NCBI GenBank assembly: GCA_948567375.1
Contig: OX419760.1
Span: 15,810,001-15,874,000 of the forward strand
DNA length: 64,000 bases
Reading direction: 5' to 3'
Source: Lunularia cruciata
Taxonomy: Eukaryota; Streptophyta; Marchantiopsida; Lunulariales; Lunulariaceae
Made by a program: the position numbers and the translations under genes. Of this stretch, positions 139 through 46,570 are shown one piece after another. Position 1 is the stretch's first letter, and the number at the start of each line of letters is the position of its first letter. Below the pieces are notes generated by a model, which saw only the letters and a list, made by a program, of their open reading frames with translations, made no database searches and was not told the origin of the DNA.

Positions 139-2397
139 ACAACAAGACAGAAGCAATGCTTTTCTTGGCCAATATCATTGGTGATATTCACCAGGTCGGT
201 TGTTATCCACGAGCATTCGCTGGCACGAGACAGAAACTGGCTTGATCTGGCTGCTAGATTTCATTGCCAAGTTGTTCATATTACTCATCAGTGAATTACT
301 GAATTTAACTGAAATATTAAAATTTCGATTTTCATGTTTTACTTCGAGCTAGTTCGAATTTGCATATGGGGCAATGACTCATAGCTACCACTACGAGTCA
401 GATTCAGAGCAAGTCCGGTCGGTCATACGTGGGTATGGGACTGGGTTGTTTACAAGCGGGTTCTGTATTCTATTATAGAAATATGTAATAGGCTATCGAG
501 TCGGGTCATGTGGATGTGAGACCGAGTTCTCGTAATGGATGCTGCATACGATTACTCAATATGGAAGAGGCTTTTTTACAAGTGAAAGACTAACGGTGTG
601 CTACTCATACAGCCCCTACGAGTAGGATTTGCAGGAGATGAAGGCGGTGACACCATTCGCGTCTATTGGTTGGACACAAAGAATGGGAGCAGCACCAGTC
701 TGTTTGAGGTGGGAAGTTTGTCCTCAAATACTACATCTTGTTCAAATTAAGTTTGTCTCTCGCTGGTTCGAAGAATTAAATTATGTTTACGGGCTTTCTT
801 GCATGGACGTATTGATCCTACGCACTATATTCCCCAAATTCGTCTCCTTCAACGCCGTCGGTAGAAATTATGTGTAAAAATGAAGCCCATATTCGTGAAG
901 ATCCAATTTCCGTACGAGATGCTTTATGCTTTTGTTGCAAGGATGGACTTCTTTTCACTCTGCAGATGTCATTTTTACTTCAACCGAGTTGTCTTATTCT
1001 CTCTTCGGAATATAGGAACGAAATTTTCTGTAAATATTTTTTGCGCTATTTTCGTTGACTCCCCAAGTCGGGGTTCACTACAGGCGACTCCTTCTCATCT
1101 CTTCTATACTGAGCGTAGCCACTATTTACGCTCTACGATACTTAAGATGAATATAGTCTCATCTAAGTAGGTTCCTTTCACTTATCACTTAACATGACAA
1201 AGTTGGGAACAAGGGCGGAAGCACTGAAATTATTTCATTTACGGTTAAGCCAGGTATGGGATTCAGTTATAATTCACGAAACAGAGGAGCGATATTTCAA
1301 TAAGAGTACCCCGACGTTCAACGAGACTTTGGTGGATATACTCGGCAACATGTCGCTAGCTATATATGCCAATCTCACTGTAAGCTCACCTGAACTTATC
1401 TTACGTATTAACTTTAAGTCAGAACTTTCAAGTTCTTCAGCTTTTGAATGATAGGAACTGCTTATACATTATCTCTACTGGTTTACGAACCTGCATCCAA
1501 AGAAACTTGGTAGTGTTGAAGCATTTCGTCTATGCTCATTCAAGTTTATATCTTAATTTACAGACTGCAGATATTACTGCGTGGGGTCCATGCCCTGGAG
1601 GCGTAGTCTCGTGCCCAGACGTGTGAGTATGCTCAAACATTGGTTCGATTAAGGATAACATCATTTGGTCCAAATTTCTCCTACAGTTTGTTCTGGTTGC
1701 AGTACATGTTTCAAAACTTGTAATCATGTGAGATGATAAACTTGCTAAGCAGATATGCAAAGGAGAGCATCGAACTGGCCTGTTCCTCGGCGTATGCAAA
1801 TGTAGCTCCCAATCAAATACTGATGGGTATGTATTCTCTCTTTCTTGCACGCTATTTTCTCTTGACAGACTGTTAGTACCGTTGTTGGAGTATATTTGTA
1901 AACTGCGGCTTGTATAGGAGGAAAGCAGTACTTAATATCAGTTTTATTTCGAGACTCTGGTTCCTTACCGTATGAATGATATTTGTTTCATGACAGATGA
2001 CTACTACCTCTCAAGACTGCCCGTTGTAGAGACAAGACTGAAACAAGCTGCTGTGAGGATTGCTTCAACATTCAACCGGATATTTGATCCAACTTACAAA
2101 GAAGCACCTTTACCTGCTCCTCCACCACCTGCCACGCCTACTGCTCCACCAACGTCCCCACCTGCACCTCCTGTAGCTCCAGTACCGCCAGTTCCCCCGG
2201 TGAATCCAGTCCCCATTCCTCCAGTAGTTCCAGTTCCCCCGGTAACACCAGCTCCTCCAGTTACGCCTGCCCCTCCTTTGGTTTCAGTTCCCCCAGTTGC
2301 CCCAGTACCTGTGGCACCTGCTCCAGTTAATGTTACTCCTCCAGCACCAGTTGTCATTCCAGTACCTCCTGTGGTTGGAACTCCGGTAGGCCCTTGA
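139..2397 (+). CDS. S1/P1-family nuclease-like protein, last six exons (5' part outside window), with proline-rich C-terminal tail
   Basis: The proposed exons are 139-194, 613-708, 1254-1379, 1564-1622, 1753-1826 and 1997-2397. All junctions are AG/GT and the phases join without a stop, giving 269 residues. The product follows plant ENDO/BFN nucleases block by block: NIIGDIHQ, then PLRVGFAGDEGGDTI, VWDSVII, CPGGVVSC-PDVYAKESIELAC, and DDYYLSRLPVVETRLKQA. These enzymes are secreted, three-zinc, single-strand DNA/RNA nucleases of senescence and cell death. Here the zinc-ligand histidines numbered 116, 126 and 149 in P1 nuclease are Asn, Arg and Phe, while the Asp ligands at 120 and 153 remain. 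The conserved cysteines are present, and there are several N-glycosylation sequons. After IASTFNRIFDPTYKEA come about 97 residues made almost only of Pro, Ala, Val and Thr, which ordinary family members lack. The N-terminal half, with the signal peptide and the first ligands, lies off the left edge. Family membership is secure; activity is doubtful. Splice sites are inferred by eye. Confidence 0.87.
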
Positions 2398-4535: not shown

Positions 4536-4583
4536 CAGGTACATATACATTACGCCATGCTACGCGTAATGTATATGTACCTG
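4536..4583. repeat. Perfect 20-bp inverted repeat with 8-base loop
   Basis: The arm 4536-4555 (CAGGTACATATACATTACGC) is the exact reverse complement of 4564-4583, separated by CATGCTAC. A third, partial copy of the TATAATGTATATGTA motif follows at once. It would form a stable hairpin in RNA or cruciform DNA. Confidence 0.9.
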
Positions 4584-10351: not shown

Positions 10352-10566
10352 GCCGCCGACCTCCCACATCAGTAGAGAAAAAATACATCAGGAATAAACG
10401 GCCGACCTCCCACGTCAGCAGAGAGAAAATACATCAGGAATAAACGGCCAACTTAAACAGAGGGAGAAAAACTGGTATCAAGAGTACCTCCCACATCAGC
10501 AGAGAAAAAATACATCAGAAATAAACGGCCAACTTAAACGGATGGAGAAAAACTGGTATCAAGAGT
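10352..10566. repeat. Composite tandem repeat, about 48-bp and longer units
   Basis: Units with CTCCCACATCAGCAGAG, AAAATACATCAG and AATAAACGGCC repeat three times, alternating with a block carrying GGAGAAAAACTGGTATCAAG that occurs twice. The order is two short units, then two long units. I see no coding potential. Confidence 0.85.
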
Positions 10567-10706
10567 ACGTAGTATATATGTATGTGTATATATATTAAAT
10601 TAAACTTTGTTCCTTTAAGGCTGTAAGATGATGAATGCAAAATGGATATGATAAAAAATTCTGTAATATTAATTTAAAATATAAATATGAAAATACCCCA
10701 AGGAAA

Positions 10707-10733
10707 GGGGGGGGGGGGGGGGGGGGGGGGGGG
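10707..10733. repeat. Homopolymer run of 27 G
   Basis: An uninterrupted run of G. It creates artificial poly-Gly and poly-Pro open frames on the two strands, and its true length is uncertain because long homopolymers are error-prone in sequencing. Confidence 0.85.
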
Positions 10734-15020: not shown

Positions 15021-17507
15021 TTATGAATGACTTCCACTATTTGTGATGTCTGGAGGAGTTTCTGTCATGCTTCCAGAAACAGGCGTGACAGTTGCTGCAT
15101 GGGGTGTAGCAGCAGGAAGAGCCTCATCAATATTGCTAGAAGGAGGACGGTCTGTTGAAGGGGAGTCTTCATCCGCAATACGAATTTGGTTAAGCATGAT
15201 ACGGACATCCTTGCTCGTCGGCCGTTCGTTGGCATTGTCAGCCGTACAGAAAACTGCAATTTTCATGGCCAGTAGAATTTCTTCTTCGAATTCCCCGGAT
15301 CCATCCGCTATGAGCTTGGGGTCGATCGCATCCTTACCATGGCCGCTTTGTAGCAGATTATGCAACCAGCTTCCGATATTTCCTCCGGGTACTGAATGGA
15401 AGAACTGGTCCGTAGGATCCTTACCAGTCAGAAGCACTGCCAGAACAACTCCGAACGAATACACATCACTCTTATCCGTAAATCTGCATGTCTGAGAATA
15501 CTCCGGTGCAATGTAGCCCACTGTGCCCGCCACTCCAGTGGTAACGTGAGTATCACCCCCGGGGAGAACCTTTGCTAGTCCAAAGTCGGCCAAGTGAGCC
15601 ACGAAATTTTGGTCCAGCAAAATGTTGGATGGTTTAAGATCCCTGTGCACAATTCTGGGCACACAATGGAAGTGGAGGTATGACAGACCGTGAGCAGTAC
15701 CGACTGCAATTCTATGGCGGATGGGCCATGACATGCTCAGCTCGCCGGAATCGATTTTGCGAAGGGCGTCGTAGAGAGAACCGTTGTGCATGTATTGATA
15801 TAGAAGGAGGTGGCAATCGGGTCGATGGACATATGCTAAGAGTGTGACAAGATTACGATGGCGAATGCAGCCTAGGGTTTCGAGCTCGGCTTGAATCTGT
15901 CGCTTTCCAAAAACCCCCTTCTGATCCTCTTTCACCATCACGCTCTTGACAGCCACATCCATTCCTGCACCTTCCGTCTCTAGTTTTGTTTTATACACTT
16001 TACCGGCACCTCCTTCGCCAATCAATTCCGCTGCACTGAATGTATCGTCCTTCTCGAGGAAAACCAGCATCTTGGGATCAATCTTCGGGTGGAAGATGAT
16101 GGGCCCCTGAAGGTAAGGTGGCTTGTGCATGTAGAATACACAGAGACGCAGGACTGTTGCAAGAAGAGCGGCAGCTAGGGCTCCGGCTACGATCCCCAAA
16201 GCCAAACCCAGTGCCCATTTTCTCACCTTGTGATCTTTCTTAGCGGGAGGTGGCACTGCTGGGGAAGGGGCGGGTGTTTCTGCTTCTGAATTGTTTGTAG
16301 GGGACTGAGCTGATGATAACGGCGACGGAGCGGGTGCATCTCCTTCCGCCATGGATCTTCTACTTCGTGCCATTAGTCCTCTCCACTTCCCGGCTGGTTG
16401 TGAATCTGTCGCCACCTTCAGTTGAGGGCCAGGCTGCTTTACAGATGAAATTTTGCAAAGTCTTGTCAACGGCCAGCCACATAGACCCGGGTTATTGGAG
16501 AAGGTGCCCGATAGAACCATCTGCTGCACCTTCCATTTCCCATTCGGAATTGGCCCTGATAACGCGTTGTTCGAGAAATTGAATTGTCTGTCTCCCAATA
16601 GCTCAGTAAATTCCACCGGTATTGCGCCACTTAATAGGTTCTCTGAAACATCAAAGCGTTCCAACATCTTGCAGCTGGCAACTGAGGCAGGGATAGGTCC
16701 ATCGAGGAAGTTCGTGTTCAGAATGAATGCTCTGAGGTGGCGTAGCGAGCCCACGCCCCCTGGAATCCTTCCCACCAGACTGTTGTCATTCAGACTCACC
16801 TCGAGTAGTTGATTGCACCTGCTAATTGCATTGGGGATCTTCCCCTTCAGCCAGTTCTTGGCCAAATCCAGTACCTCCAGGCGTGGGCAAAGTCCCATGT
16901 ACAGACGATCGCTTCTACCAACGAAGCGATCTATTGGGTCGAAGATGCTTTCTTCGACAAACAGCGCATCTAAAGTACCTGAAAGCTGATTTTCTGACAG
17001 TTTCAAGACCTCGAGCAATGGCAAATTCGCAAGGCTGAACTTCAGAGGACCGGAAAACTTATTTGCACGTAGGTCCAAAACCGTCAGCTTGTGACAATTG
17101 CCAATCTCGGGGGGAATGTGCCCAGTAAATTTGTTGCCTACAACTACAAGCCGCCGTAGTTCCGTCAGCTGTCCGAGCTCATTGGGCAAAGAACCTTCAA
17201 GCTCGAGACCCCAAAATTCCAAACCCACAACTCTAGTTTCTACCTTCTCAGTATCTCCAGCCAATGCGACTTCATGGCATGCCACACAGTTCCATCGGCA
17301 GGGATCGGGCTGAATGTCCCAGTCTCCCAAAGCATGCATTGGATCCTTTCTTATCTGATCCTTAAAAGCCCTCAAAACCTCCGCATCAAGCCTCAATCCT
17401 ACTGAAAGCTCAGCTCTTCCGTCATCCCGTATTGAAACTGCCCATGTCGACAGCGACAGCAGCCCAACTACAACACTCAAAATCGCAATCAGTCGTAATC
17501 CGGCCAT
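15021..17507 (-). CDS. SOBIR1-like: SOBIR1-like leucine-rich-repeat receptor kinase, complete, intronless
   Basis: I chose the ATG at 17507 (context AACAATGGC), giving 828 residues; the in-frame codon further upstream is TTG. Residues 1-25 look like a signal peptide, followed by a Cys-containing LRR cap (DPCRWNCVAC, about 68-77). Roughly nine LRRs lie at 95-330, with an irregular island near 178-206, and a C-cap NNPGLCGWPLTRLC follows. A Pro/Ser-rich APAPSP stretch (390-422) leads to the membrane segment 434-457 with GLALGIVAGALAAA, a GxxxG array like that of SOBIR1. The kinase is complete: IGEGGAGKV (496-504), VAVK Lys521, HRD Asp623, DFG Asp641, APE. SOBIR1-type signatures include RPDCHLLLYQYM, SDVYSFGVVLAVLLTGK, AIDPKL and RPTSKDVRIMLNQI. 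Angiosperm SOBIR1 (about 640 residues, about five LRRs) is the immune adaptor kinase for receptor-like proteins. This one has more LRRs and a Ser/Thr/Pro tail of about 50 residues. Whether it acts as an adaptor or as a receptor is unknown. Confidence 0.93.
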   Translation of the reverse strand: MAGLRLIAILSVVVGLLSLSTWAVSIRDDGRAELSVGLRLDAEVLRAFKDQIRKDPMHALGDWDIQPDPCRWNCVACHEVALAGDTEKVETRVVGLEFWGLELEGSLPNELGQLTELRRLVVVGNKFTGHIPPEIGNCHKLTVLDLRANKFSGPLKFSLANLPLLEVLKLSENQLSGTLDALFVEESIFDPIDRFVGRSDRLYMGLCPRLEVLDLAKNWLKGKIPNAISRCNQLLEVSLNDNSLVGRIPGGVGSLRHLRAFILNTNFLDGPIPASVASCKMLERFDVSENLLSGAIPVEFTELLGDRQFNFSNNALSGPIPNGKWKVQQMVLSGTFSNNPGLCGWPLTRLCKISSVKQPGPQLKVATDSQPAGKWRGLMARSRRSMAEGDAPAPSPLSSAQSPTNNSEAETPAPSPAVPPPAKKDHKVRKWALGLALGIVAGALAAALLATVLRLCVFYMHKPPYLQGPIIFHPKIDPKMLVFLEKDDTFSAAELIGEGGAGKVYKTKLETEGAGMDVAVKSVMVKEDQKGVFGKRQIQAELETLGCIRHRNLVTLLAYVHRPDCHLLLYQYMHNGSLYDALRKIDSGELSMSWPIRHRIAVGTAHGLSYLHFHCVPRIVHRDLKPSNILLDQNFVAHLADFGLAKVLPGGDTHVTTGVAGTVGYIAPEYSQTCRFTDKSDVYSFGVVLAVLLTGKDPTDQFFHSVPGGNIGSWLHNLLQSGHGKDAIDPKLIADGSGEFEEEILLAMKIAVFCTADNANERPTSKDVRIMLNQIRIADEDSPSTDRPPSSNIDEALPAATPHAATVTPVSGSMTETPPDITNSGSHS

Positions 17508-17563
17508 TGTTCTCAAAACTCGACCTAAACATACAGTTTAATCATGTGTATATACGTATCTTT

Positions 17564-18691: not shown

Positions 18692-20062
18692 GAGAAAGGC
18701 TACCAGGTAGAACACATGGGAAGACCCCATCAAGCCATGCAAGGGAGAGACAAAAGAGGTAAAATGGAGCTGGCCCCAATAGTTTCGAAACGAGCAATCT
18801 GCCCATCGCACCGAAGATATCTGAGCTATGCAAGTCACAAGATCTATAAACTACAGGAACATCCAAAGAAGTGTGATTGCTCTCCTATGGATTGCACTGG
18901 CCAATGCTCTTGATAGAGCAATAGACACAAATTGTCTAAAGTATTCCACAAAAGTATGAGAGTGAGAGTGGTACCCAATGATATCTAATATGATAAATTC
19001 CCATGCACTCCTTGACAAATGTGTCAAACATTGTGTCCATCGCTCCATATAACTCCGAGGCTAGAAGAACAAAGAGGTGACCTTGCTGCATACCCTTAAT
19101 ACTTGGAGACCTTGCAAGCTATTGCTAAGCTTGCTGCCCATATAAGAGGATAAGTAATCACTCCCTCCAAAACTATATCACATGTAGGATCTGTAACCAC
19201 AACAACCACCACTATCACTTGATCATCTTGGACCAAGTATAAGTCTACTCTGACACGTGTCATTTGCAAAGCATATGAATGCTCCCTCCAAGCAACATAT
19301 CTACTCTCTTATATCATAACAAACACTATATCCCTAATGGCATCATGGGTAGCAATCCTTTGTTCTCCAAAATGACACTGTGTCATATGGATAGATGTTA
19401 CATCTAGTGTAGAACCACACTCATAAGTGAGTAACAAAGATGCAAACGAGTGGACCAAACCTAGGCAAAACCTCATTGCTATAGAGAAGGTGGTTGGTGC
19501 AAGTCAAAATGCCCTAATGCTCAATTGAGCTAGGATCTAAGAGCATACATCCTTGCTAGAGCAAGAGCAAAGCATGCTCTAGTGGCCCAAGGAATGGACG
19601 AGTAAACTAAGAGGGAATGTAGCGTATGTTGACATTGTCACTCTTCATCAAGGAAGATTGCAAGCCTTTGGTCCAATCTGACGGTAGTGAAGCAAAGGAT
19701 GGAAGGTCCTCTTGTGCCCATAAGGATAGACCATCTCTCATCTGCTGCAATAAAACTTGGAGAGAAAAGGATCCCTCCTCCAACTGGGCCATATATGTCT
19801 CCAAAACTGGCCTATTAGTAACCACAAAATGGAAGGAAAGTAGGGGTGCTGAGAGAGCCCAACTACCTAAAAATGCCATAGGTGCCATCTCCTCCATTGA
19901 TAATAAACCTATCCTTTGCACAAGATTGGTAGAGATGTTTTTCTACATGCCAAATCCCCCGTCACACACTCAAATATCTTTGGTTTGATTGTAAAAGACA
20001 AAGGAGAGAAATACAAGAATGGAAGATCAAAGTGAAAGATTAAAGTTAAAGATGACATTGGG

Positions 20063-22802: not shown

Positions 22803-23541
22803 TGTAATACCAAGAGCTAGCCATATGATCTAGATGTGAAATTTGGTTTGGTAACATCTAGAATGATGTTATACATGATGGTCAAAATAGATCAGATAGA
22901 AGTATCACCAAAAGAGTACTTCTATGAATAGAGTAGAAACCAAAATAGATTTGAAAACCTTAGAACCAATAGCTAGACATATGATTTAAAGAAGAGAATT
23001 AGTTTGGTAACATCTCGAAGGATGTTACACATGATGGACTAAACAGATCAAAAAGAGGTATCACCAAAAGGGGACTTCTACTAATAGAGTAGGAACCAAA
23101 ATATGCTTGAAATCTTTGAAGGCAATTTTGGAGGCCTAAACGGATGAATTAGGCCTCAAAAATGTGCAAATTCCCCTCCCCCAACAAAGAGATGGTTTGC
23201 CTTCCCTCTCCCCTGCTTTGTCTTGTCAAGAGCTTTCCAATCATACCTCACTCACATGATTATGAGATTCCCATAGGAAGATTCTCTAAAAGATTCCCTC
23301 TATCAAAGCTTGTTTGACCAACCAGATAGGACGTGGACCGACATGTCACCCATCCAAGTAAGTAATCCAAGGGTGGAGCTTGCTGACATGTCATCTATCT
23401 ATGTGCCTAATCCTATGGTAGAGCTTCCTTGGATGAGATACTCCTTATCTATATAATAAAGAGAATGTGCTCCTTTGGGGCATCGGATGATTGAGTGTGA
23501 AATCTATATTTTCTCTCTTCTCTTGTCCTCAGAGTATTACA
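22803..23541 (+). mobile_element. Solo LTR D1, inside Gypsy C
   Basis: 739 bp with matching inverted ends TGTAATAC...GTATTACA and a TATA-like CTATATAATAAAGAG near the 3' third. Homologous throughout to 33860-34620. I see no clear target duplication (GCACT / ATTCC), which fits the rearranged state of its host element. Confidence 0.75.
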
Positions 23542-25133
23542 ATTCCATGTCATCCCTAATACTTTATCACGACAACCTTATTTGAAGTCTCTTCCTCTCA
23601 TCACGGCAGAAATTACAACGGTGTCAATTGACTCTAAGGTCCATAATGAGTTTTGGTCAGCTCTACAACAAGATCCCTTCTTCCAAATGGTGCATGGCCA
23701 TTTAACATCATGCGACGAGGAGTACAACACCTTCTCCTTCAAGGAAGGCATTCTATTCCATGAGGACCAGATCTATGTTCTGGCCAAAGGTGATCTCAGA
23801 CTTGTGCATCTTCAAGAAGCCCATGATTTACCAATAGCTAGTCCCATGGGTGTGGACAAGACCTTGGTTACACTCCAACGCCAATGGTGGTGGCCCAACA
23901 TGCCACAAGATGTTCAGGAGTTTGTACGATCATGTGAGAGTTGTCAATGCAACAAGGCCAAAAACTAGAAGCTGAGTGGACTCCTTCAGCCACTCCTCAT
24001 TCCAGCTACTCGTTGGGAACATGTGAGCTTAGAATTCATCACCTCCTTGCCCAAGACAAAGCAGGATCACACAACAATTGTGGTGTTTGTGGATAAGCTT
24101 AGTAAGCAAATCTATTTGGCACCAACAGTTGATACTGTGGATGCTCCAACCTTGGTGCAACTCTACTTTGACAATGTATTGAAACATCAAGGGGTGTCAT
24201 GTGTACTCATCTCCGACCGTGATCCTTGCTTCATTGGAAAGTTTTGGCAAACACTCTTCCAGATACTTGGCACCAAGCTTGCTTTGTCCACAACCTATCA
24301 TCCTCAAACTGATGGACAAATTGAATGTTGAACAAATTGAATGCAAAGTGCACCTTGGAAGATATACTTCATGCCTTTATCAACATTCACCATACCAATT
24401 AGGATGAATGTCTTACAGTAGCAGAGTTTGCATACAACAATTCTAAACAAGCAAGAGCTAGATTCTCTCTTCTTTCTCAATTTTGGCCAAGATCCACTTG
24501 TTCAAATTCCCTTCTTGCTCCTCCCCGTCTCATGTCCTTCATACTTCCACCTTCTTGACCACCATTTCCCAATATTTCCAACAAGCCAAATCTCATCTCC
24601 TTGTTGCTCAAAATTGGTAGAAACAATATGCAGATCACCATCACCGCAATCTCAACTTTCAAGTTGGTGATAAGGTCATGCCCTCATCCAATAACCTCTC
24701 TCTCCCACTTGATACCCAAGTTTGTAAACTCGCCTTTAATTAGATAGGACCCTTTGATATCACCCAAATTGTCTCTCATGTTGCTTATCGACTTGCCTTG
24801 CCTTGTCATATGCACATCCATCCTATCTTTCATGTTTCCAAGTTGAAACCTTTTTTTCCTAACCCCTCTTCTTTTACCTCTTGAGTCCGACCTCCCCCTC
24901 TTCTTGTCCCTATCAATGATCATGAGGAGTACAAAGTTGATCGTATCCTTGCACTTTGCCATATTCAACAAGGCCATCAACAACATACGGAGTACAAGGT
25001 CCTTTGGAAAGGGAATCTCCTTCACGATGCCACATGGGAATCTCTTTCTCATCTCCAGAATGCACAACTGGCCATCCAAGAGTTTGAAGCTTCATTGGCA
25101 ATGAGGATATCACCAACTAGTGATGGGGGAATA

Positions 25134-41480: not shown

Positions 41481-41871
41481 ATGACGATTCCACTTAACAT
41501 TCCAAACTTTCAACGCAATCGTTGTCATAACATACAAAAAGGACCCGCACAAGCTAACAAGAAGGAAGGGAAAGAGGACCCTACCATGGGTTGCATTCCC
41601 AGTCCACCAAACCCCAATAAAATGGTTCAGCTGGTGTCCATTTTGGACATCGATAAGCACTCTGCTGTGGACCCGGGTAGAATTGCATCTAGACATCAAT
41701 ATTTCAACCCTGCTGAGTGGCAGGCTAGAGCTGTGCTCAGTCATAGAGTGGGGTTCAGGAGATGGACTGGATTTTTTATTATTTTAATATTATCAAGAAA
41801 AGGGATCGTGAATATAAAGAACAACAACGGGATGCCAAGACATTTATAGATGAAATGGAAGATGATACAAA

Positions 41872-42637
41872 ATGTCAAAGGATTTATTTGAATATCTGTC
41901 CTCCGTGCTTGCAAGCCAACTCACACCAAAAAACAATTGTGTACTTCTAGTTGATCCAAGAATTAAACTACTCATCACACTTTGGTTATTGAGCAGCAGA
42001 TTTTTTTCAATCAATATCAGGAGAGTTGTACAAAGTATCCCAGCCAGCAGTACCAAAACTAATTTCTCCAACTGTTCGCAAAATAGCACTATTCAGACCT
42101 CAGTTCATCAATCTTTATGGATCCATCTGATGCTCAAAATCAACAAAAGAAATTCTCACAACCGGCAAGAAAATATACAAAAGTTTCCCAATGTGATAGG
42201 AGCAATCAATGGAACGGTGACTAATGAACTCATTCCTAAAATTGAAAATCATGAGCAATTTTGTGGAAGGAAGAATAAATTTTTTTCTAAATGTGATGGT
42301 AGTATGTGATGCCAAGATGCAACTTTTTAACATCATTGCTTCTTGGCCTTGCTTGTTGGCTTGTTGGCATGATGCATGTGTATTTGAAAAAAGTAAGCCC
42401 TGTGCACAATTGGAAAATGCTGCAATCATTAGCTGGCTTCTTGACGACACTGCCTGGGGACTGAAAAAGTACATGCTCACATCAATAGACAATCCAAGCT
42501 CGCAAGCCAAACACAAATACAACATATCCCATTTTTCTACAAGAGGAATCATTGAGAGTGCCTTTGGATTTTGGATGCTTGAATTGAAAGTTTCATTGTC
42601 TCAAATCAAATATGCAAGTCAAGTTGTCTACTCATGA
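41872..42637 (+). pseudogene. PIF/Harbinger DDE transposase, broken
   Basis: Family blocks run in order: a helix-turn-helix-like part with YKVSQPAVPKLI, then FPNVIGAINGT, VVCDAKMQLFNIIASWP, WHDACVFEKS, and a distal IIESAFGF. These match FPNVVGAIDGT, VCDAKMRF...WPGS.HDSRVF and ..ERAFG of plant transposases. At least two frame changes separate the blocks (one between about 41.98 and 42.1 kb, one near 42.3 kb). The first catalytic Asp (AIDGT) is Asn, so it could not be active even where the frame is open. The second Asp and the Glu are still visible. Confidence 0.72.
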
Positions 42638-44049: not shown

Positions 44050-46570
44050 AAAAAGGAAACCCTATAGAAAACACAAAGGATTGGAGGACCATATCAAGCT
44101 ATACAAGGATGAGATAAAACAAGTAAAATAGAACTAAGTCCCAATAGTATCTATATGAGAAATCTGCTATACCTATTGCACCTAAGATATCCACACTATG
44201 CAAGTCATAAGGTCTAAAAGCTACTAGAGCACCCAAAGAAGCATCGCTTTGATTGCTCTCCTATAGATTGCACTTGCAAGTGCTCTTTGTAGAGAAATGG
44301 ACACACACTATTTGAAATATGCTACAAAGTATGAGAGTGACAGTGGTACCCTATGATGTTGAATATGATATTCTTTCATTCACTTTGTGATAAATATTAT
44401 ATCCATCACTCCAGATAACTCCAAGTCTAGAAGAACAAAGAGGTGACCTCGATGCATACTCCTATACTTGGAGACCTTGCGTGTTGCCGCTCCACTTGCT
44501 ACCCATCTAGGAGATGAGGATTCACTTCCTTTAAAACTGCATCATGCTTAGAGTCCATAACCACAAGATCCGCTACTATCACATGATCATCTTGAACCAA
44601 GTATCTACCCTGATACATGTTGTTGCAAAGCATACAAATGCTCCCTTCAAGCAATGGGTCCACTCTCTTGTGCCAGCAAGCACTATATCCTTAGTGGTAT
44701 CATGGGTAGTGATCCTTTATCCTCCAAAAGGGCGTTGTGTCATATGGAGAAATGTTGCATCTAGTGTAGAACCACATTTACAAGTGAGTAATGAAGATGC
44801 AAATGGGTGGACCAAACATAAGCAAAACCTCATCATTGTAGAGAAGCTACTTGGTACAAATTGGAATGCCCTAATGCATGATTGAGCTAGGATCCAAGAG
44901 CTTGCACCGTTGTTAGAGCAAGAGTAAAGATGTGCTCTAGTGGCCCAAGGAATGGACAAGTCAAAAAAAAGAGAATGTAGCATATGCTTAAATTGTTGCT
45001 CCATCAAGGAAGATTGTAAGTCTCTAGATCAATCAAAAGGTAAGGAAACAAAGGATGGAAGGTCATCTTGTGCATGTGGAGATACACCATCTCTTATATG
45101 CCATAATAACATATGGAGAGTATAGGATATCTCCTCCACCTTGGTCACATATGTTTTCCAAGATTGGCCTATTAGTAACCACAAAACCAGAGGAAACTAG
45201 AGGTGCCAAGAAAGCTCAACTACCCAAAAATATTACAGGTGCCATCTCATCCATAAATAGTAGACATACTCCTCCACACAATATTAGTAGAAATGTTTGC
45301 CTATATGCCAAATCCTCTATCAAACACTCAAAAGTCCTTAGTCCAATGATATCACCAAAGATTCCCATAATCCTCCTATCAAAAGCTCTTAGACATGATA
45401 GGAAGATCAAGGAAGGAGGAACCATGAGACAAAGGTAAGTTAATTGAGCAATACTAGAGGAGAGTATACCAAATGCCACTTGTGGACCTCTGAGTAGAAG
45501 AAGGTCATCCACATAGAGAATAGCTTTTACAAAGGTTACGTCTAAGGAGAGAGTGACAAAATCCTCAAATCTTACTAGCACTCTAAGGATACATAGTCCA
45601 TCTACAGATGTGATAAACCCCTCTAAAAGGTCAAGGTGGGAAGGGATACCTAAAGGGAATCATGCTCTACAGTTTGACACGTTGACTCTCAAGCCTACAA
45701 GATGAAGCTTAGTAGTCAAGTGGTCAAAGGCCTCCTTAATCTTATCTACGTGTGTATTGTCTACCAAGGAGAGAAATAAAAAACCTAACATGGCCAAAGT
45801 AATAGATAAGAAAGCTTTTAAGTGAGCCATGGCAAATAAAGGTCCTCCTAAAGAATCTTTTTATGTGTACCAATAACTGACTCGAAGGCAATGATTACTT
45901 CTTGGGAAATATTGTGTTTGTAGTAAAGGGAAGCAAGAGAGCCAAAGAAAAACCTCACAAAAGGATTAAGAATTGCCAAGGATCCACTAGCCTCCCTAAG
46001 TTCTCTAAATATGGATGCATGTGAGATGCTATTACAAGCATCCTCAACATCCACATGTAAGACAACCCACTCTAGATGGTTATCTAAGAGTGCCCTAATG
46101 CTTAGAGATATAGTCTCACAATCTCTAGGTGTAGCTACTCTAAACTAATGTGGATTGAGGTGTTGTTGGAAGTGAGAATGATGCTGAACGACAATGGTAT
46201 GGCTAACCAAATGCAAAAAGACCCAATGACAATCAGTTGAATGCCCCTATGTTCTCTATCATGAGAAGTAGACAAGCACCTAACACTGGACTCAATGACA
46301 TAGGAATGTCTCCACTTGCTACTATTGCAGCAACTTAATAAAACTTAATAAAACCACTAAAAAGATCATTTGCATGAAAACAATCTCTAAGATGCTCACA
46401 TACCATATGTGATAAATGCACAATGCTTGTACAAATAGTAATCTATCAAGACATAAAAACTACTTAGGCTAATAATCTAAGATCTATATTGCACTTCCTC
46501 TCCTTCCTTAGGATATAATAAACATAGGGAAGAGACAATCTTGTCAACAAGACTAACTATAGAAAAAGAG
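44050..46570 (-). mobile_element. LINE-like element, copy 2, not interrupted
   Basis: Homologous along its length to the two halves of copy 1. Minus-strand reverse-transcriptase blocks are MDVEDACNSISHASIFREL (about 46.05 kb, resembling the D-F-x-N-A-F-N-S motif), SLVDNTHV (about 45.77 kb, the position of the ADD box) and a downstream FGILSSSIAQLTYL block (about 45.5 kb). The catalytic acidic pair is altered and stops interrupt the frame, so it is dead. Its 5' end reaches less far than copy 1, without the zinc-finger part. It serves as the unfilled reference for insertions in copy 1. Confidence 0.7.

What the first reader, a model, noticed from the sequence alone, without database searches (positions are those of the whole stretch)
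139..1379. S1/P1 nuclease-like gene with three zinc-ligand histidines replaced in an otherwise open, splice-consistent frame
Seen: NIIGDIHQPLR has Asn and Arg where family members have His in HFIGDIHQPLH, and SLFEVWD has Phe where plants have NLHHVWD. The changes fall in three separate exons, while splice sites, phase, cysteines and Asp ligands are kept. Known: these His correspond to P1 ligands 116, 126 and 149 of the trinuclear zinc site. Inference: a pseudoenzyme kept for binding or scaffolding rather than a decaying copy, because random decay should also have hit frame or splicing.
Basis: partly seen in the sequence, partly recalled or inferred. Interest (0 to 1): 0.75.

Follow-up and report, generated by a model that had tools for sequence, protein, structure and literature searches.

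The report
Plant nuclease-like protein lacking zinc-binding histidines
A probable land-plant gene keeps the shape of a well-known DNA- and RNA-cutting enzyme but has swapped out three residues that hold its catalytic zinc and carries a long proline-rich tail, so it probably no longer cuts and may have been kept for another job, such as binding.

Summary
Window 139-2397 carries the last six exons of an S1/P1 nuclease-like gene. All five introns are GT-AG and the frame is open to a stop. Pfam PF02265 matches at 5.3e-31, profile 107-258. Arabidopsis ENDO2 zinc ligands H120, H130 and H154 are Asn, Arg and Phe here; ligands D124 and D158 remain. The sugar-contacting N140 is Asp. All three His are kept in 146 of 146 aligned prokaryotic and viral relatives and in 20 of 20 weaker ones fetched. 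Correction: the changes lie in two exons, not three, and the gene runs past 1379. The last exon adds a 98-residue tail with 26 [STAGV]P dipeptides. Canonical catalysis is very unlikely. Neutral decay fits poorly but is not excluded: losing all three His with an open frame has probability about 0.003 at most, yet once the His are lost an open frame is not rare at low divergence (0.19 at 0.1 changes per site). The 5' half, transcripts and plant orthologues are not available. Active-site-lacking members of this family are already reported in Leishmania. Verdict: a probable pseudoenzyme, a new variant of a known kind, of moderate interest.

The parts
139..194 (+). exon a (first one seen in the window): NKTEAMLFLANIIGDIHQ; first His ligand (ENDO2 H120) is Asn, Asp ligand D124 kept
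   Evidence: AG before and GT after; PDB alignment to ENDO2/TBN1
613..708 (+). exon b: PLR...GGD...SLFE; His ligands H130 to Arg and H154 to Phe, N140 to Asp
1254..1379 (+). exon c: begins VWD, Asp ligand D158 kept
1564..1622 (+). exon d: two of the three conserved Cys of this part
1753..1826 (+). exon e: third conserved Cys, YAKESIELAC
1997..2397 (+). exon f: end of nuclease domain (DDYYLSRLP...FNRIFDP), Pro-rich tail, stop
   Evidence: Pfam match ends at profile position 258 of 258, residue 167
2101..2394 (+). Pro-rich tail, 98 aa, 46% Pro, 26 [STAGV]P dipeptides (arabinogalactan-protein type motif)
   Evidence: dipeptide criterion from PMC12209756 (passage)

Best explanation
It is the 3' part of a land-plant S1/P1 (ENDO/BFN-type) nuclease paralogue that has lost its trinuclear zinc catalysis and is probably still made as a protein: a pseudonuclease. 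Shown: the domain, the open spliced frame, the three lost His ligands, the lost sugar-contacting Asn, the kept Asp ligands and Cys, and a long in-frame [STAGV]P-rich tail. Inferred: the zinc that needs H130 and H154 cannot be held, so phosphodiester cleavage stops while the fold stays. The protein is secreted (ENDO2 is a glycoprotein, and six N-glycosylation sequons lie before the tail here). The tail is O-glycosylated and holds the protein in or near the cell wall. There it binds nucleic acid or nucleotides, or an active paralogue, without cutting. The binding role is the least certain step.
For: Pfam PF02265 E 5.3e-31. Closest solved relatives are ENDO2, 66 of 150 identical, and TBN1, 61 of 153. 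All 3 His are kept in 146 of 146 aligned relatives (141 distinct) and in 20 of 20 weaker matches fetched. 15 of the 21 columns that are at least 90% conserved and shared by ENDO2 and TBN1 are kept. Losses lean to the active site. Joint probability under neutral substitution is about 0.003 at most. Five GT-AG introns, no stop before the end. Asn140 contacts the sugar in ENDO2 (PMC4144908, passages); mutants of S1 nuclease Asn154 lose activity (PMC5201275, passages). The spacing of the binding-site residues (S1 151-152 and 154, ENDO2 137-138 and 140) suggests these are counterparts. Tail: 26 [STAGV]P dipeptides, largest gap 4 residues.
Against: Only the 3' part of the gene is in the window; the start, signal peptide and four other ligands are unseen. 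No transcript, no plant orthologue, no dN/dS. Apart from ENDO2 and TBN1 the aligned set is prokaryotic and viral, so inactive plant paralogues may be common and simply unsampled. The ligand-only enrichment is not significant (p 0.11). Once the three His are lost, an open frame is expected fairly often at low divergence (0.43 at 0.05 and 0.19 at 0.1 changes per site), so recent decay remains possible. The tail's codon-position pattern can come from composition alone.
Confidence: 0.57

Rival explanations
1. A duplicated nuclease gene that is dying or recently dead: the ligands were lost under relaxed selection, and stops, frameshifts or a lost start may lie in the unseen 5' half.
For: The 5' half is outside the window and no genome is held. 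Transposon remains lie elsewhere in the window. Two other conserved positions are also changed, N152 to Ser and G251 to Ala. Given loss of the His, an open frame has probability 0.19 at 0.1 changes per site.
Against: No stop in 269 codons and five GT-AG introns. Joint probability of open frame and loss of all three His is about 0.003 at most under neutral substitution, and 0.001 or less if at least five base changes in those codons are required. 15 of 21 conserved columns and 3 of 3 Cys are kept.
Confidence: 0.3
2. An enzyme with changed chemistry: the kept Asp ligands and upstream residues still hold some metal, with Asn and Arg now binding phosphate, giving a weak or different phosphoesterase.
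For: Both Asp ligands, the GD, HQP and GG motifs and WD are kept. Asn can be a weak metal ligand and Arg can contact phosphate (general knowledge).
Against: Two His that share one zinc (H126 and H149 with D153 in P1, recalled) are replaced by Arg and Phe, and the sugar-contacting Asn is lost. None of the 166 aligned relatives lacks any of the three His.
Confidence: 0.1
3. A wrong gene model or sequence error: the real transcript uses other exons that carry the His residues, or the bases are misread.
For: No transcript was available to confirm the exons.
Against: The changed codons lie in stretches that align to ENDO2 and TBN1 without gaps around Asn and Arg, and five base changes in three codons are needed. 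A family-profile search of six-frame stretches of at least 12 codons found no alternative exon or second copy.
Confidence: 0.03

Closest known systems
Plant S1/P1 nucleases (ENDO2/AtBFN2 3W52, tomato TBN1 3SNG)
   Same: Pfam family, GDIHQP and WD motifs, two Asp ligands, the 3 Cys of this part, the sequon at ENDO2 Asn110, C-terminal SRLP...N.(I/V)F block
   Different: Three zinc-ligand His and the sugar-contacting Asn replaced; a four-residue insertion before the third His site; six N-glycosylation sequons before the tail against two in the ENDO2 fragment; 98-residue Pro-rich tail
Active-site-lacking S1/P1 paralogues of Leishmania major (Q4Q7F8-F5, PMC13232948, passages seen)
   Same: Eukaryotic S1/P1 family members stated to lack the active site that the secreted paralogues have
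   Different: Those are putative membrane-bound proteins in a gene cluster; here a plant gene with a Pro-rich tail and no second copy in the window. Their sequences were not compared here
Chimeric arabinogalactan proteins of land plants (PMC12209756, passages seen)
   Same: Known domain plus a stretch rich in [STAGV]P dipeptides
   Different: Domains used in that paper are FAS1, copper-binding-like and lipid-transfer; the word nuclease did not occur in it (count 0 listing); signal peptide not visible here

Membership tests
S1/P1 nuclease family (PF02265), by descent | Match to the family profile above the curated cut-off | tested here: met
   108.8 bits against a cut-off of 29.5, profile 107-258 of 258
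S1/P1 nuclease family (PF02265), by descent | N-terminal part of the domain (profile 1-106) | not testable with these tools
   outside the window; no genome held
Active S1/P1 zinc nuclease | C-terminal metal ligands H, D, H, H, D (SmNuc1 H141, D145, H151, H175, D179; PMC11705217) | tested here: not met
   N, D, R, F, D here
Active S1/P1 zinc nuclease | N-terminal metal ligands (SmNuc1 W27, H32, D71, H88) | not testable with these tools
   outside the window
Active S1/P1 zinc nuclease | Asn of nucleoside binding site 1 (ENDO2 Asn140, SmNuc1 Asn161) | tested here: not met
   Asp here; Asn in 136 of 146 relatives; column absent (gap) in the 20 weaker matches
Chimeric arabinogalactan protein | At least three [STAGV]P dipeptides separated by at most six residues beside a known domain (PMC12209756) | tested here: met
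   26 dipeptides in 98 residues, largest gap 4
Chimeric arabinogalactan protein | Signal peptide and Hyp-linked glycans | not testable with these tools
   N-terminus outside the window; glycans need experiment
Pseudogene | Stops, frameshifts or broken splice sites | tested here: inconclusive
   none in the six exons seen; 5' half unseen

The most novel reading that the evidence does not exclude
A plant lineage has turned a secreted zinc nuclease into a metal-poor, wall-tethered receptor for extracellular nucleic acids or nucleotides: Arg and Asn take over phosphate binding where zinc used to sit, and an arabinogalactan-type tail anchors it in the wall, so it senses or shields DNA and RNA instead of cutting them.
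Probability: 0.12. Interest if true: 0.75.

Novelty: new variant of a known kind. Interest (0 to 1): 0.42.

Why it matters
S1/P1 nucleases have a very conserved zinc site and are studied in plants for cell death and nutrient recycling. A plant member kept without that site would be a natural binding-only version and would bear on how plants handle extracellular nucleic acids. The fusion to an arabinogalactan-type tail would be a further kind of chimeric wall protein.

Tried and rejected
Tried without result: viral contigs with the window protein alone (one stretch matched a pattern, no relative confirmed); phage records by tblastn (no match); NCBIfam (no family); Rfam and tRNA scans of the window (nothing). 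Literature on plant S1/P1 members lacking ligands: only listings were seen (21 of 21 papers; 8 of 9; 20 of 1,222; 10 of 120; 20 of 23; 10 of 11). No listed title or abstract start describes such a plant member, and most subscription papers are not in that library. Codon-position test on the tail: mismatches are highest at third positions at 6 of the 8 best offsets, but composition alone can do that, so it is not used. The species was not identified.

Rows dropped and limits of the counts: one search reported 516 relatives and kept 80; one search gave 12. These 92 rows (L001-L092) were found by motif patterns, which biases them towards kept motifs, although those patterns allowed Arg at the H130 site or Asn at the H120 site. 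Of 56 loci from the profile searches (best-scoring matches), 2 (L099, L101) gave no open frame matching the ENDO2/TBN1 profile and were left out, leaving 54. Four stronger matches were not fetched. Of 41 weaker matches (under 50 bits), 20 were fetched and aligned; one of these, L165, covers the place of L101.

Because of it I lowered the best explanation from 0.60 to 0.57 and raised the decaying-gene rival from 0.27 to 0.30.

Full report
What is there. The + strand from 139 to 2397 holds six exons (139-194, 613-708, 1254-1379, 1564-1622, 1753-1826, 1997-2397) separated by five GT-AG introns of 130 to 545 bases. The joined frame runs 269 residues to a stop, and each of the five introns read through in frame contains a stop. 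Residues 2-167 match Pfam S1-P1_nuclease (PF02265, E 5.3e-31, 108.8 bits, profile 107-258 of 258). The closest solved structures are Arabidopsis ENDO2 and tomato TBN1 (E 7.2e-33 and 2.6e-30). The start of the gene lies before the window and no genome is held for it.

The three histidines. In the ENDO2 numbering used by PMC4144908 (Asn110, His130, Gly138 and Asn140 named in passages), ligands H120, H130 and H154 are Asn (AAT), Arg (CGA) and Phe (TTT) here; ligands D124 and D158 are kept. The ligand set is taken from SmNuc1: Trp27, His32, Asp71, His88, His141, Asp145, His151, His175, Asp179 (PMC11705217, passages). Arg and Phe share exon 613-708, so two exons carry the changes, not three. ENDO2 Asn140, which contacts the sugar, is Asp here. 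In S1 nuclease, mutants of Asn154 have significantly reduced activity (PMC5201275, passages); the same spacing from the neighbouring binding-site residues (S1 151-152 and 154, ENDO2 137-138 and 140) suggests the two Asn correspond.

Is it more than chance? All three His are kept in 146 of 146 aligned relatives (92 found by motif patterns, 54 by profile search), 141 of them distinct over the domain. They are also kept in 20 of 20 weaker family matches that were fetched, out of 41 listed; there the second Asp column is Glu in 14 of 20. Of 22 columns conserved at 90% or more, one (ENDO2 position 209) is not shared by the plant enzymes. Of the other 21, the window protein keeps 15 and loses 6: the three His, N140, N152 and G251. 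Active-site columns are hit more often (4 of 6) than the rest (2 of 15), one-sided p 0.031; metal ligands alone against the rest give p 0.11, which is not significant.

Decay or pseudoenzyme? Starting from the window's own domain with His at the three sites, neutral substitution was simulated (no indels, no splice sites). The joint chance of no stop in 172 codons and loss of all three His peaked at about 0.003 (000 runs per value from 0.05 to 0.8 changes per site,000 runs per value from 0.03 to 0.5), and stayed at 0.001 or below when at least five base changes in those codons were required. Against my reading: given that the three His are lost, an open frame has probability 0.43 at 0.05, 0.19 at 0.1, 0.06 at 0.2 and 0.02 at 0.3 changes per site. 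So decay of moderate age is disfavoured, while recent or mild decay is not. Nor is a gene excluded that became a pseudoenzyme long ago and died recently, since the 5' half is unseen.

The tail. The last exon continues past the domain into 98 residues, 46% Pro and 23% Val, with 26 [STAGV]P dipeptides and never more than four residues between them. This meets the dipeptide criterion used for chimeric arabinogalactan proteins in bryophytes (PMC12209756, methods passage). The domains used there are FAS1, copper-binding-like and lipid-transfer. There are six N-glycosylation sequons before the tail, against two in the matching ENDO2 fragment. The last 20 residues have a mean hydropathy of 0.82, so a GPI signal does not stand out, but no predictor was run. 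A secreted, heavily glycosylated, wall-held protein is a reasonable inference, not a result.

Setting. The window is most likely from a land plant. An open frame at 15021-17537 (-) encodes an LRR receptor kinase with SOBIR1 as its best PDB match (E 8.4e-93). Of 37 open frames of 110 residues or more, 9 were scanned against Pfam; besides the kinase, three matched transposon proteins and five matched nothing. The species was not identified. No second S1/P1 copy was found in the window.

Known or new. The S1/P1 active site is described as very well conserved (PMC4144908; PMC5201275). A precedent for loss exists: four putative membrane-bound paralogues in Leishmania major are stated to lack the active site that the secreted ones have (PMC13232948, passages). 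The listings showed no paper describing a plant member without the zinc ligands; they were partly capped and the library lacks most subscription journals. I therefore file this as a probable pseudoenzyme of the S1/P1 family by descent, not as an active S1/P1 nuclease, with an unusual tail.

Noticed in passing
window 15021-17537 (-): Long uninterrupted open frame of an LRR receptor kinase, best PDB match SOBIR1; useful for placing the genome in land plants.
   Followed up: partly
window 23501-24331 (+): Remains of a retrotransposon integrase (Integrase_H2C2 and, below its cut-off, rve).
   Followed up: no
window 41866-42637 (+): Two overlapping open frames, the second with a DDE_Tnp_4 transposase match: probable remains of a DNA transposon.
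   Followed up: no
window 19607-19988 and 45028-45659: Open frames at the two places share similar words (e.g. GLLVTTK, AQLPKN; seen by eye), so probably a dispersed repeat.
   Followed up: no
window 10707-10733: A run of 27 G, near a two-copy 81-base tandem repeat at 10405-10568.
   Followed up: no
window about 4536-4583: An inverted repeat with arms of about 19 bases (CAGGTACATATACATTACG and its complement), seen by eye.
   Followed up: no
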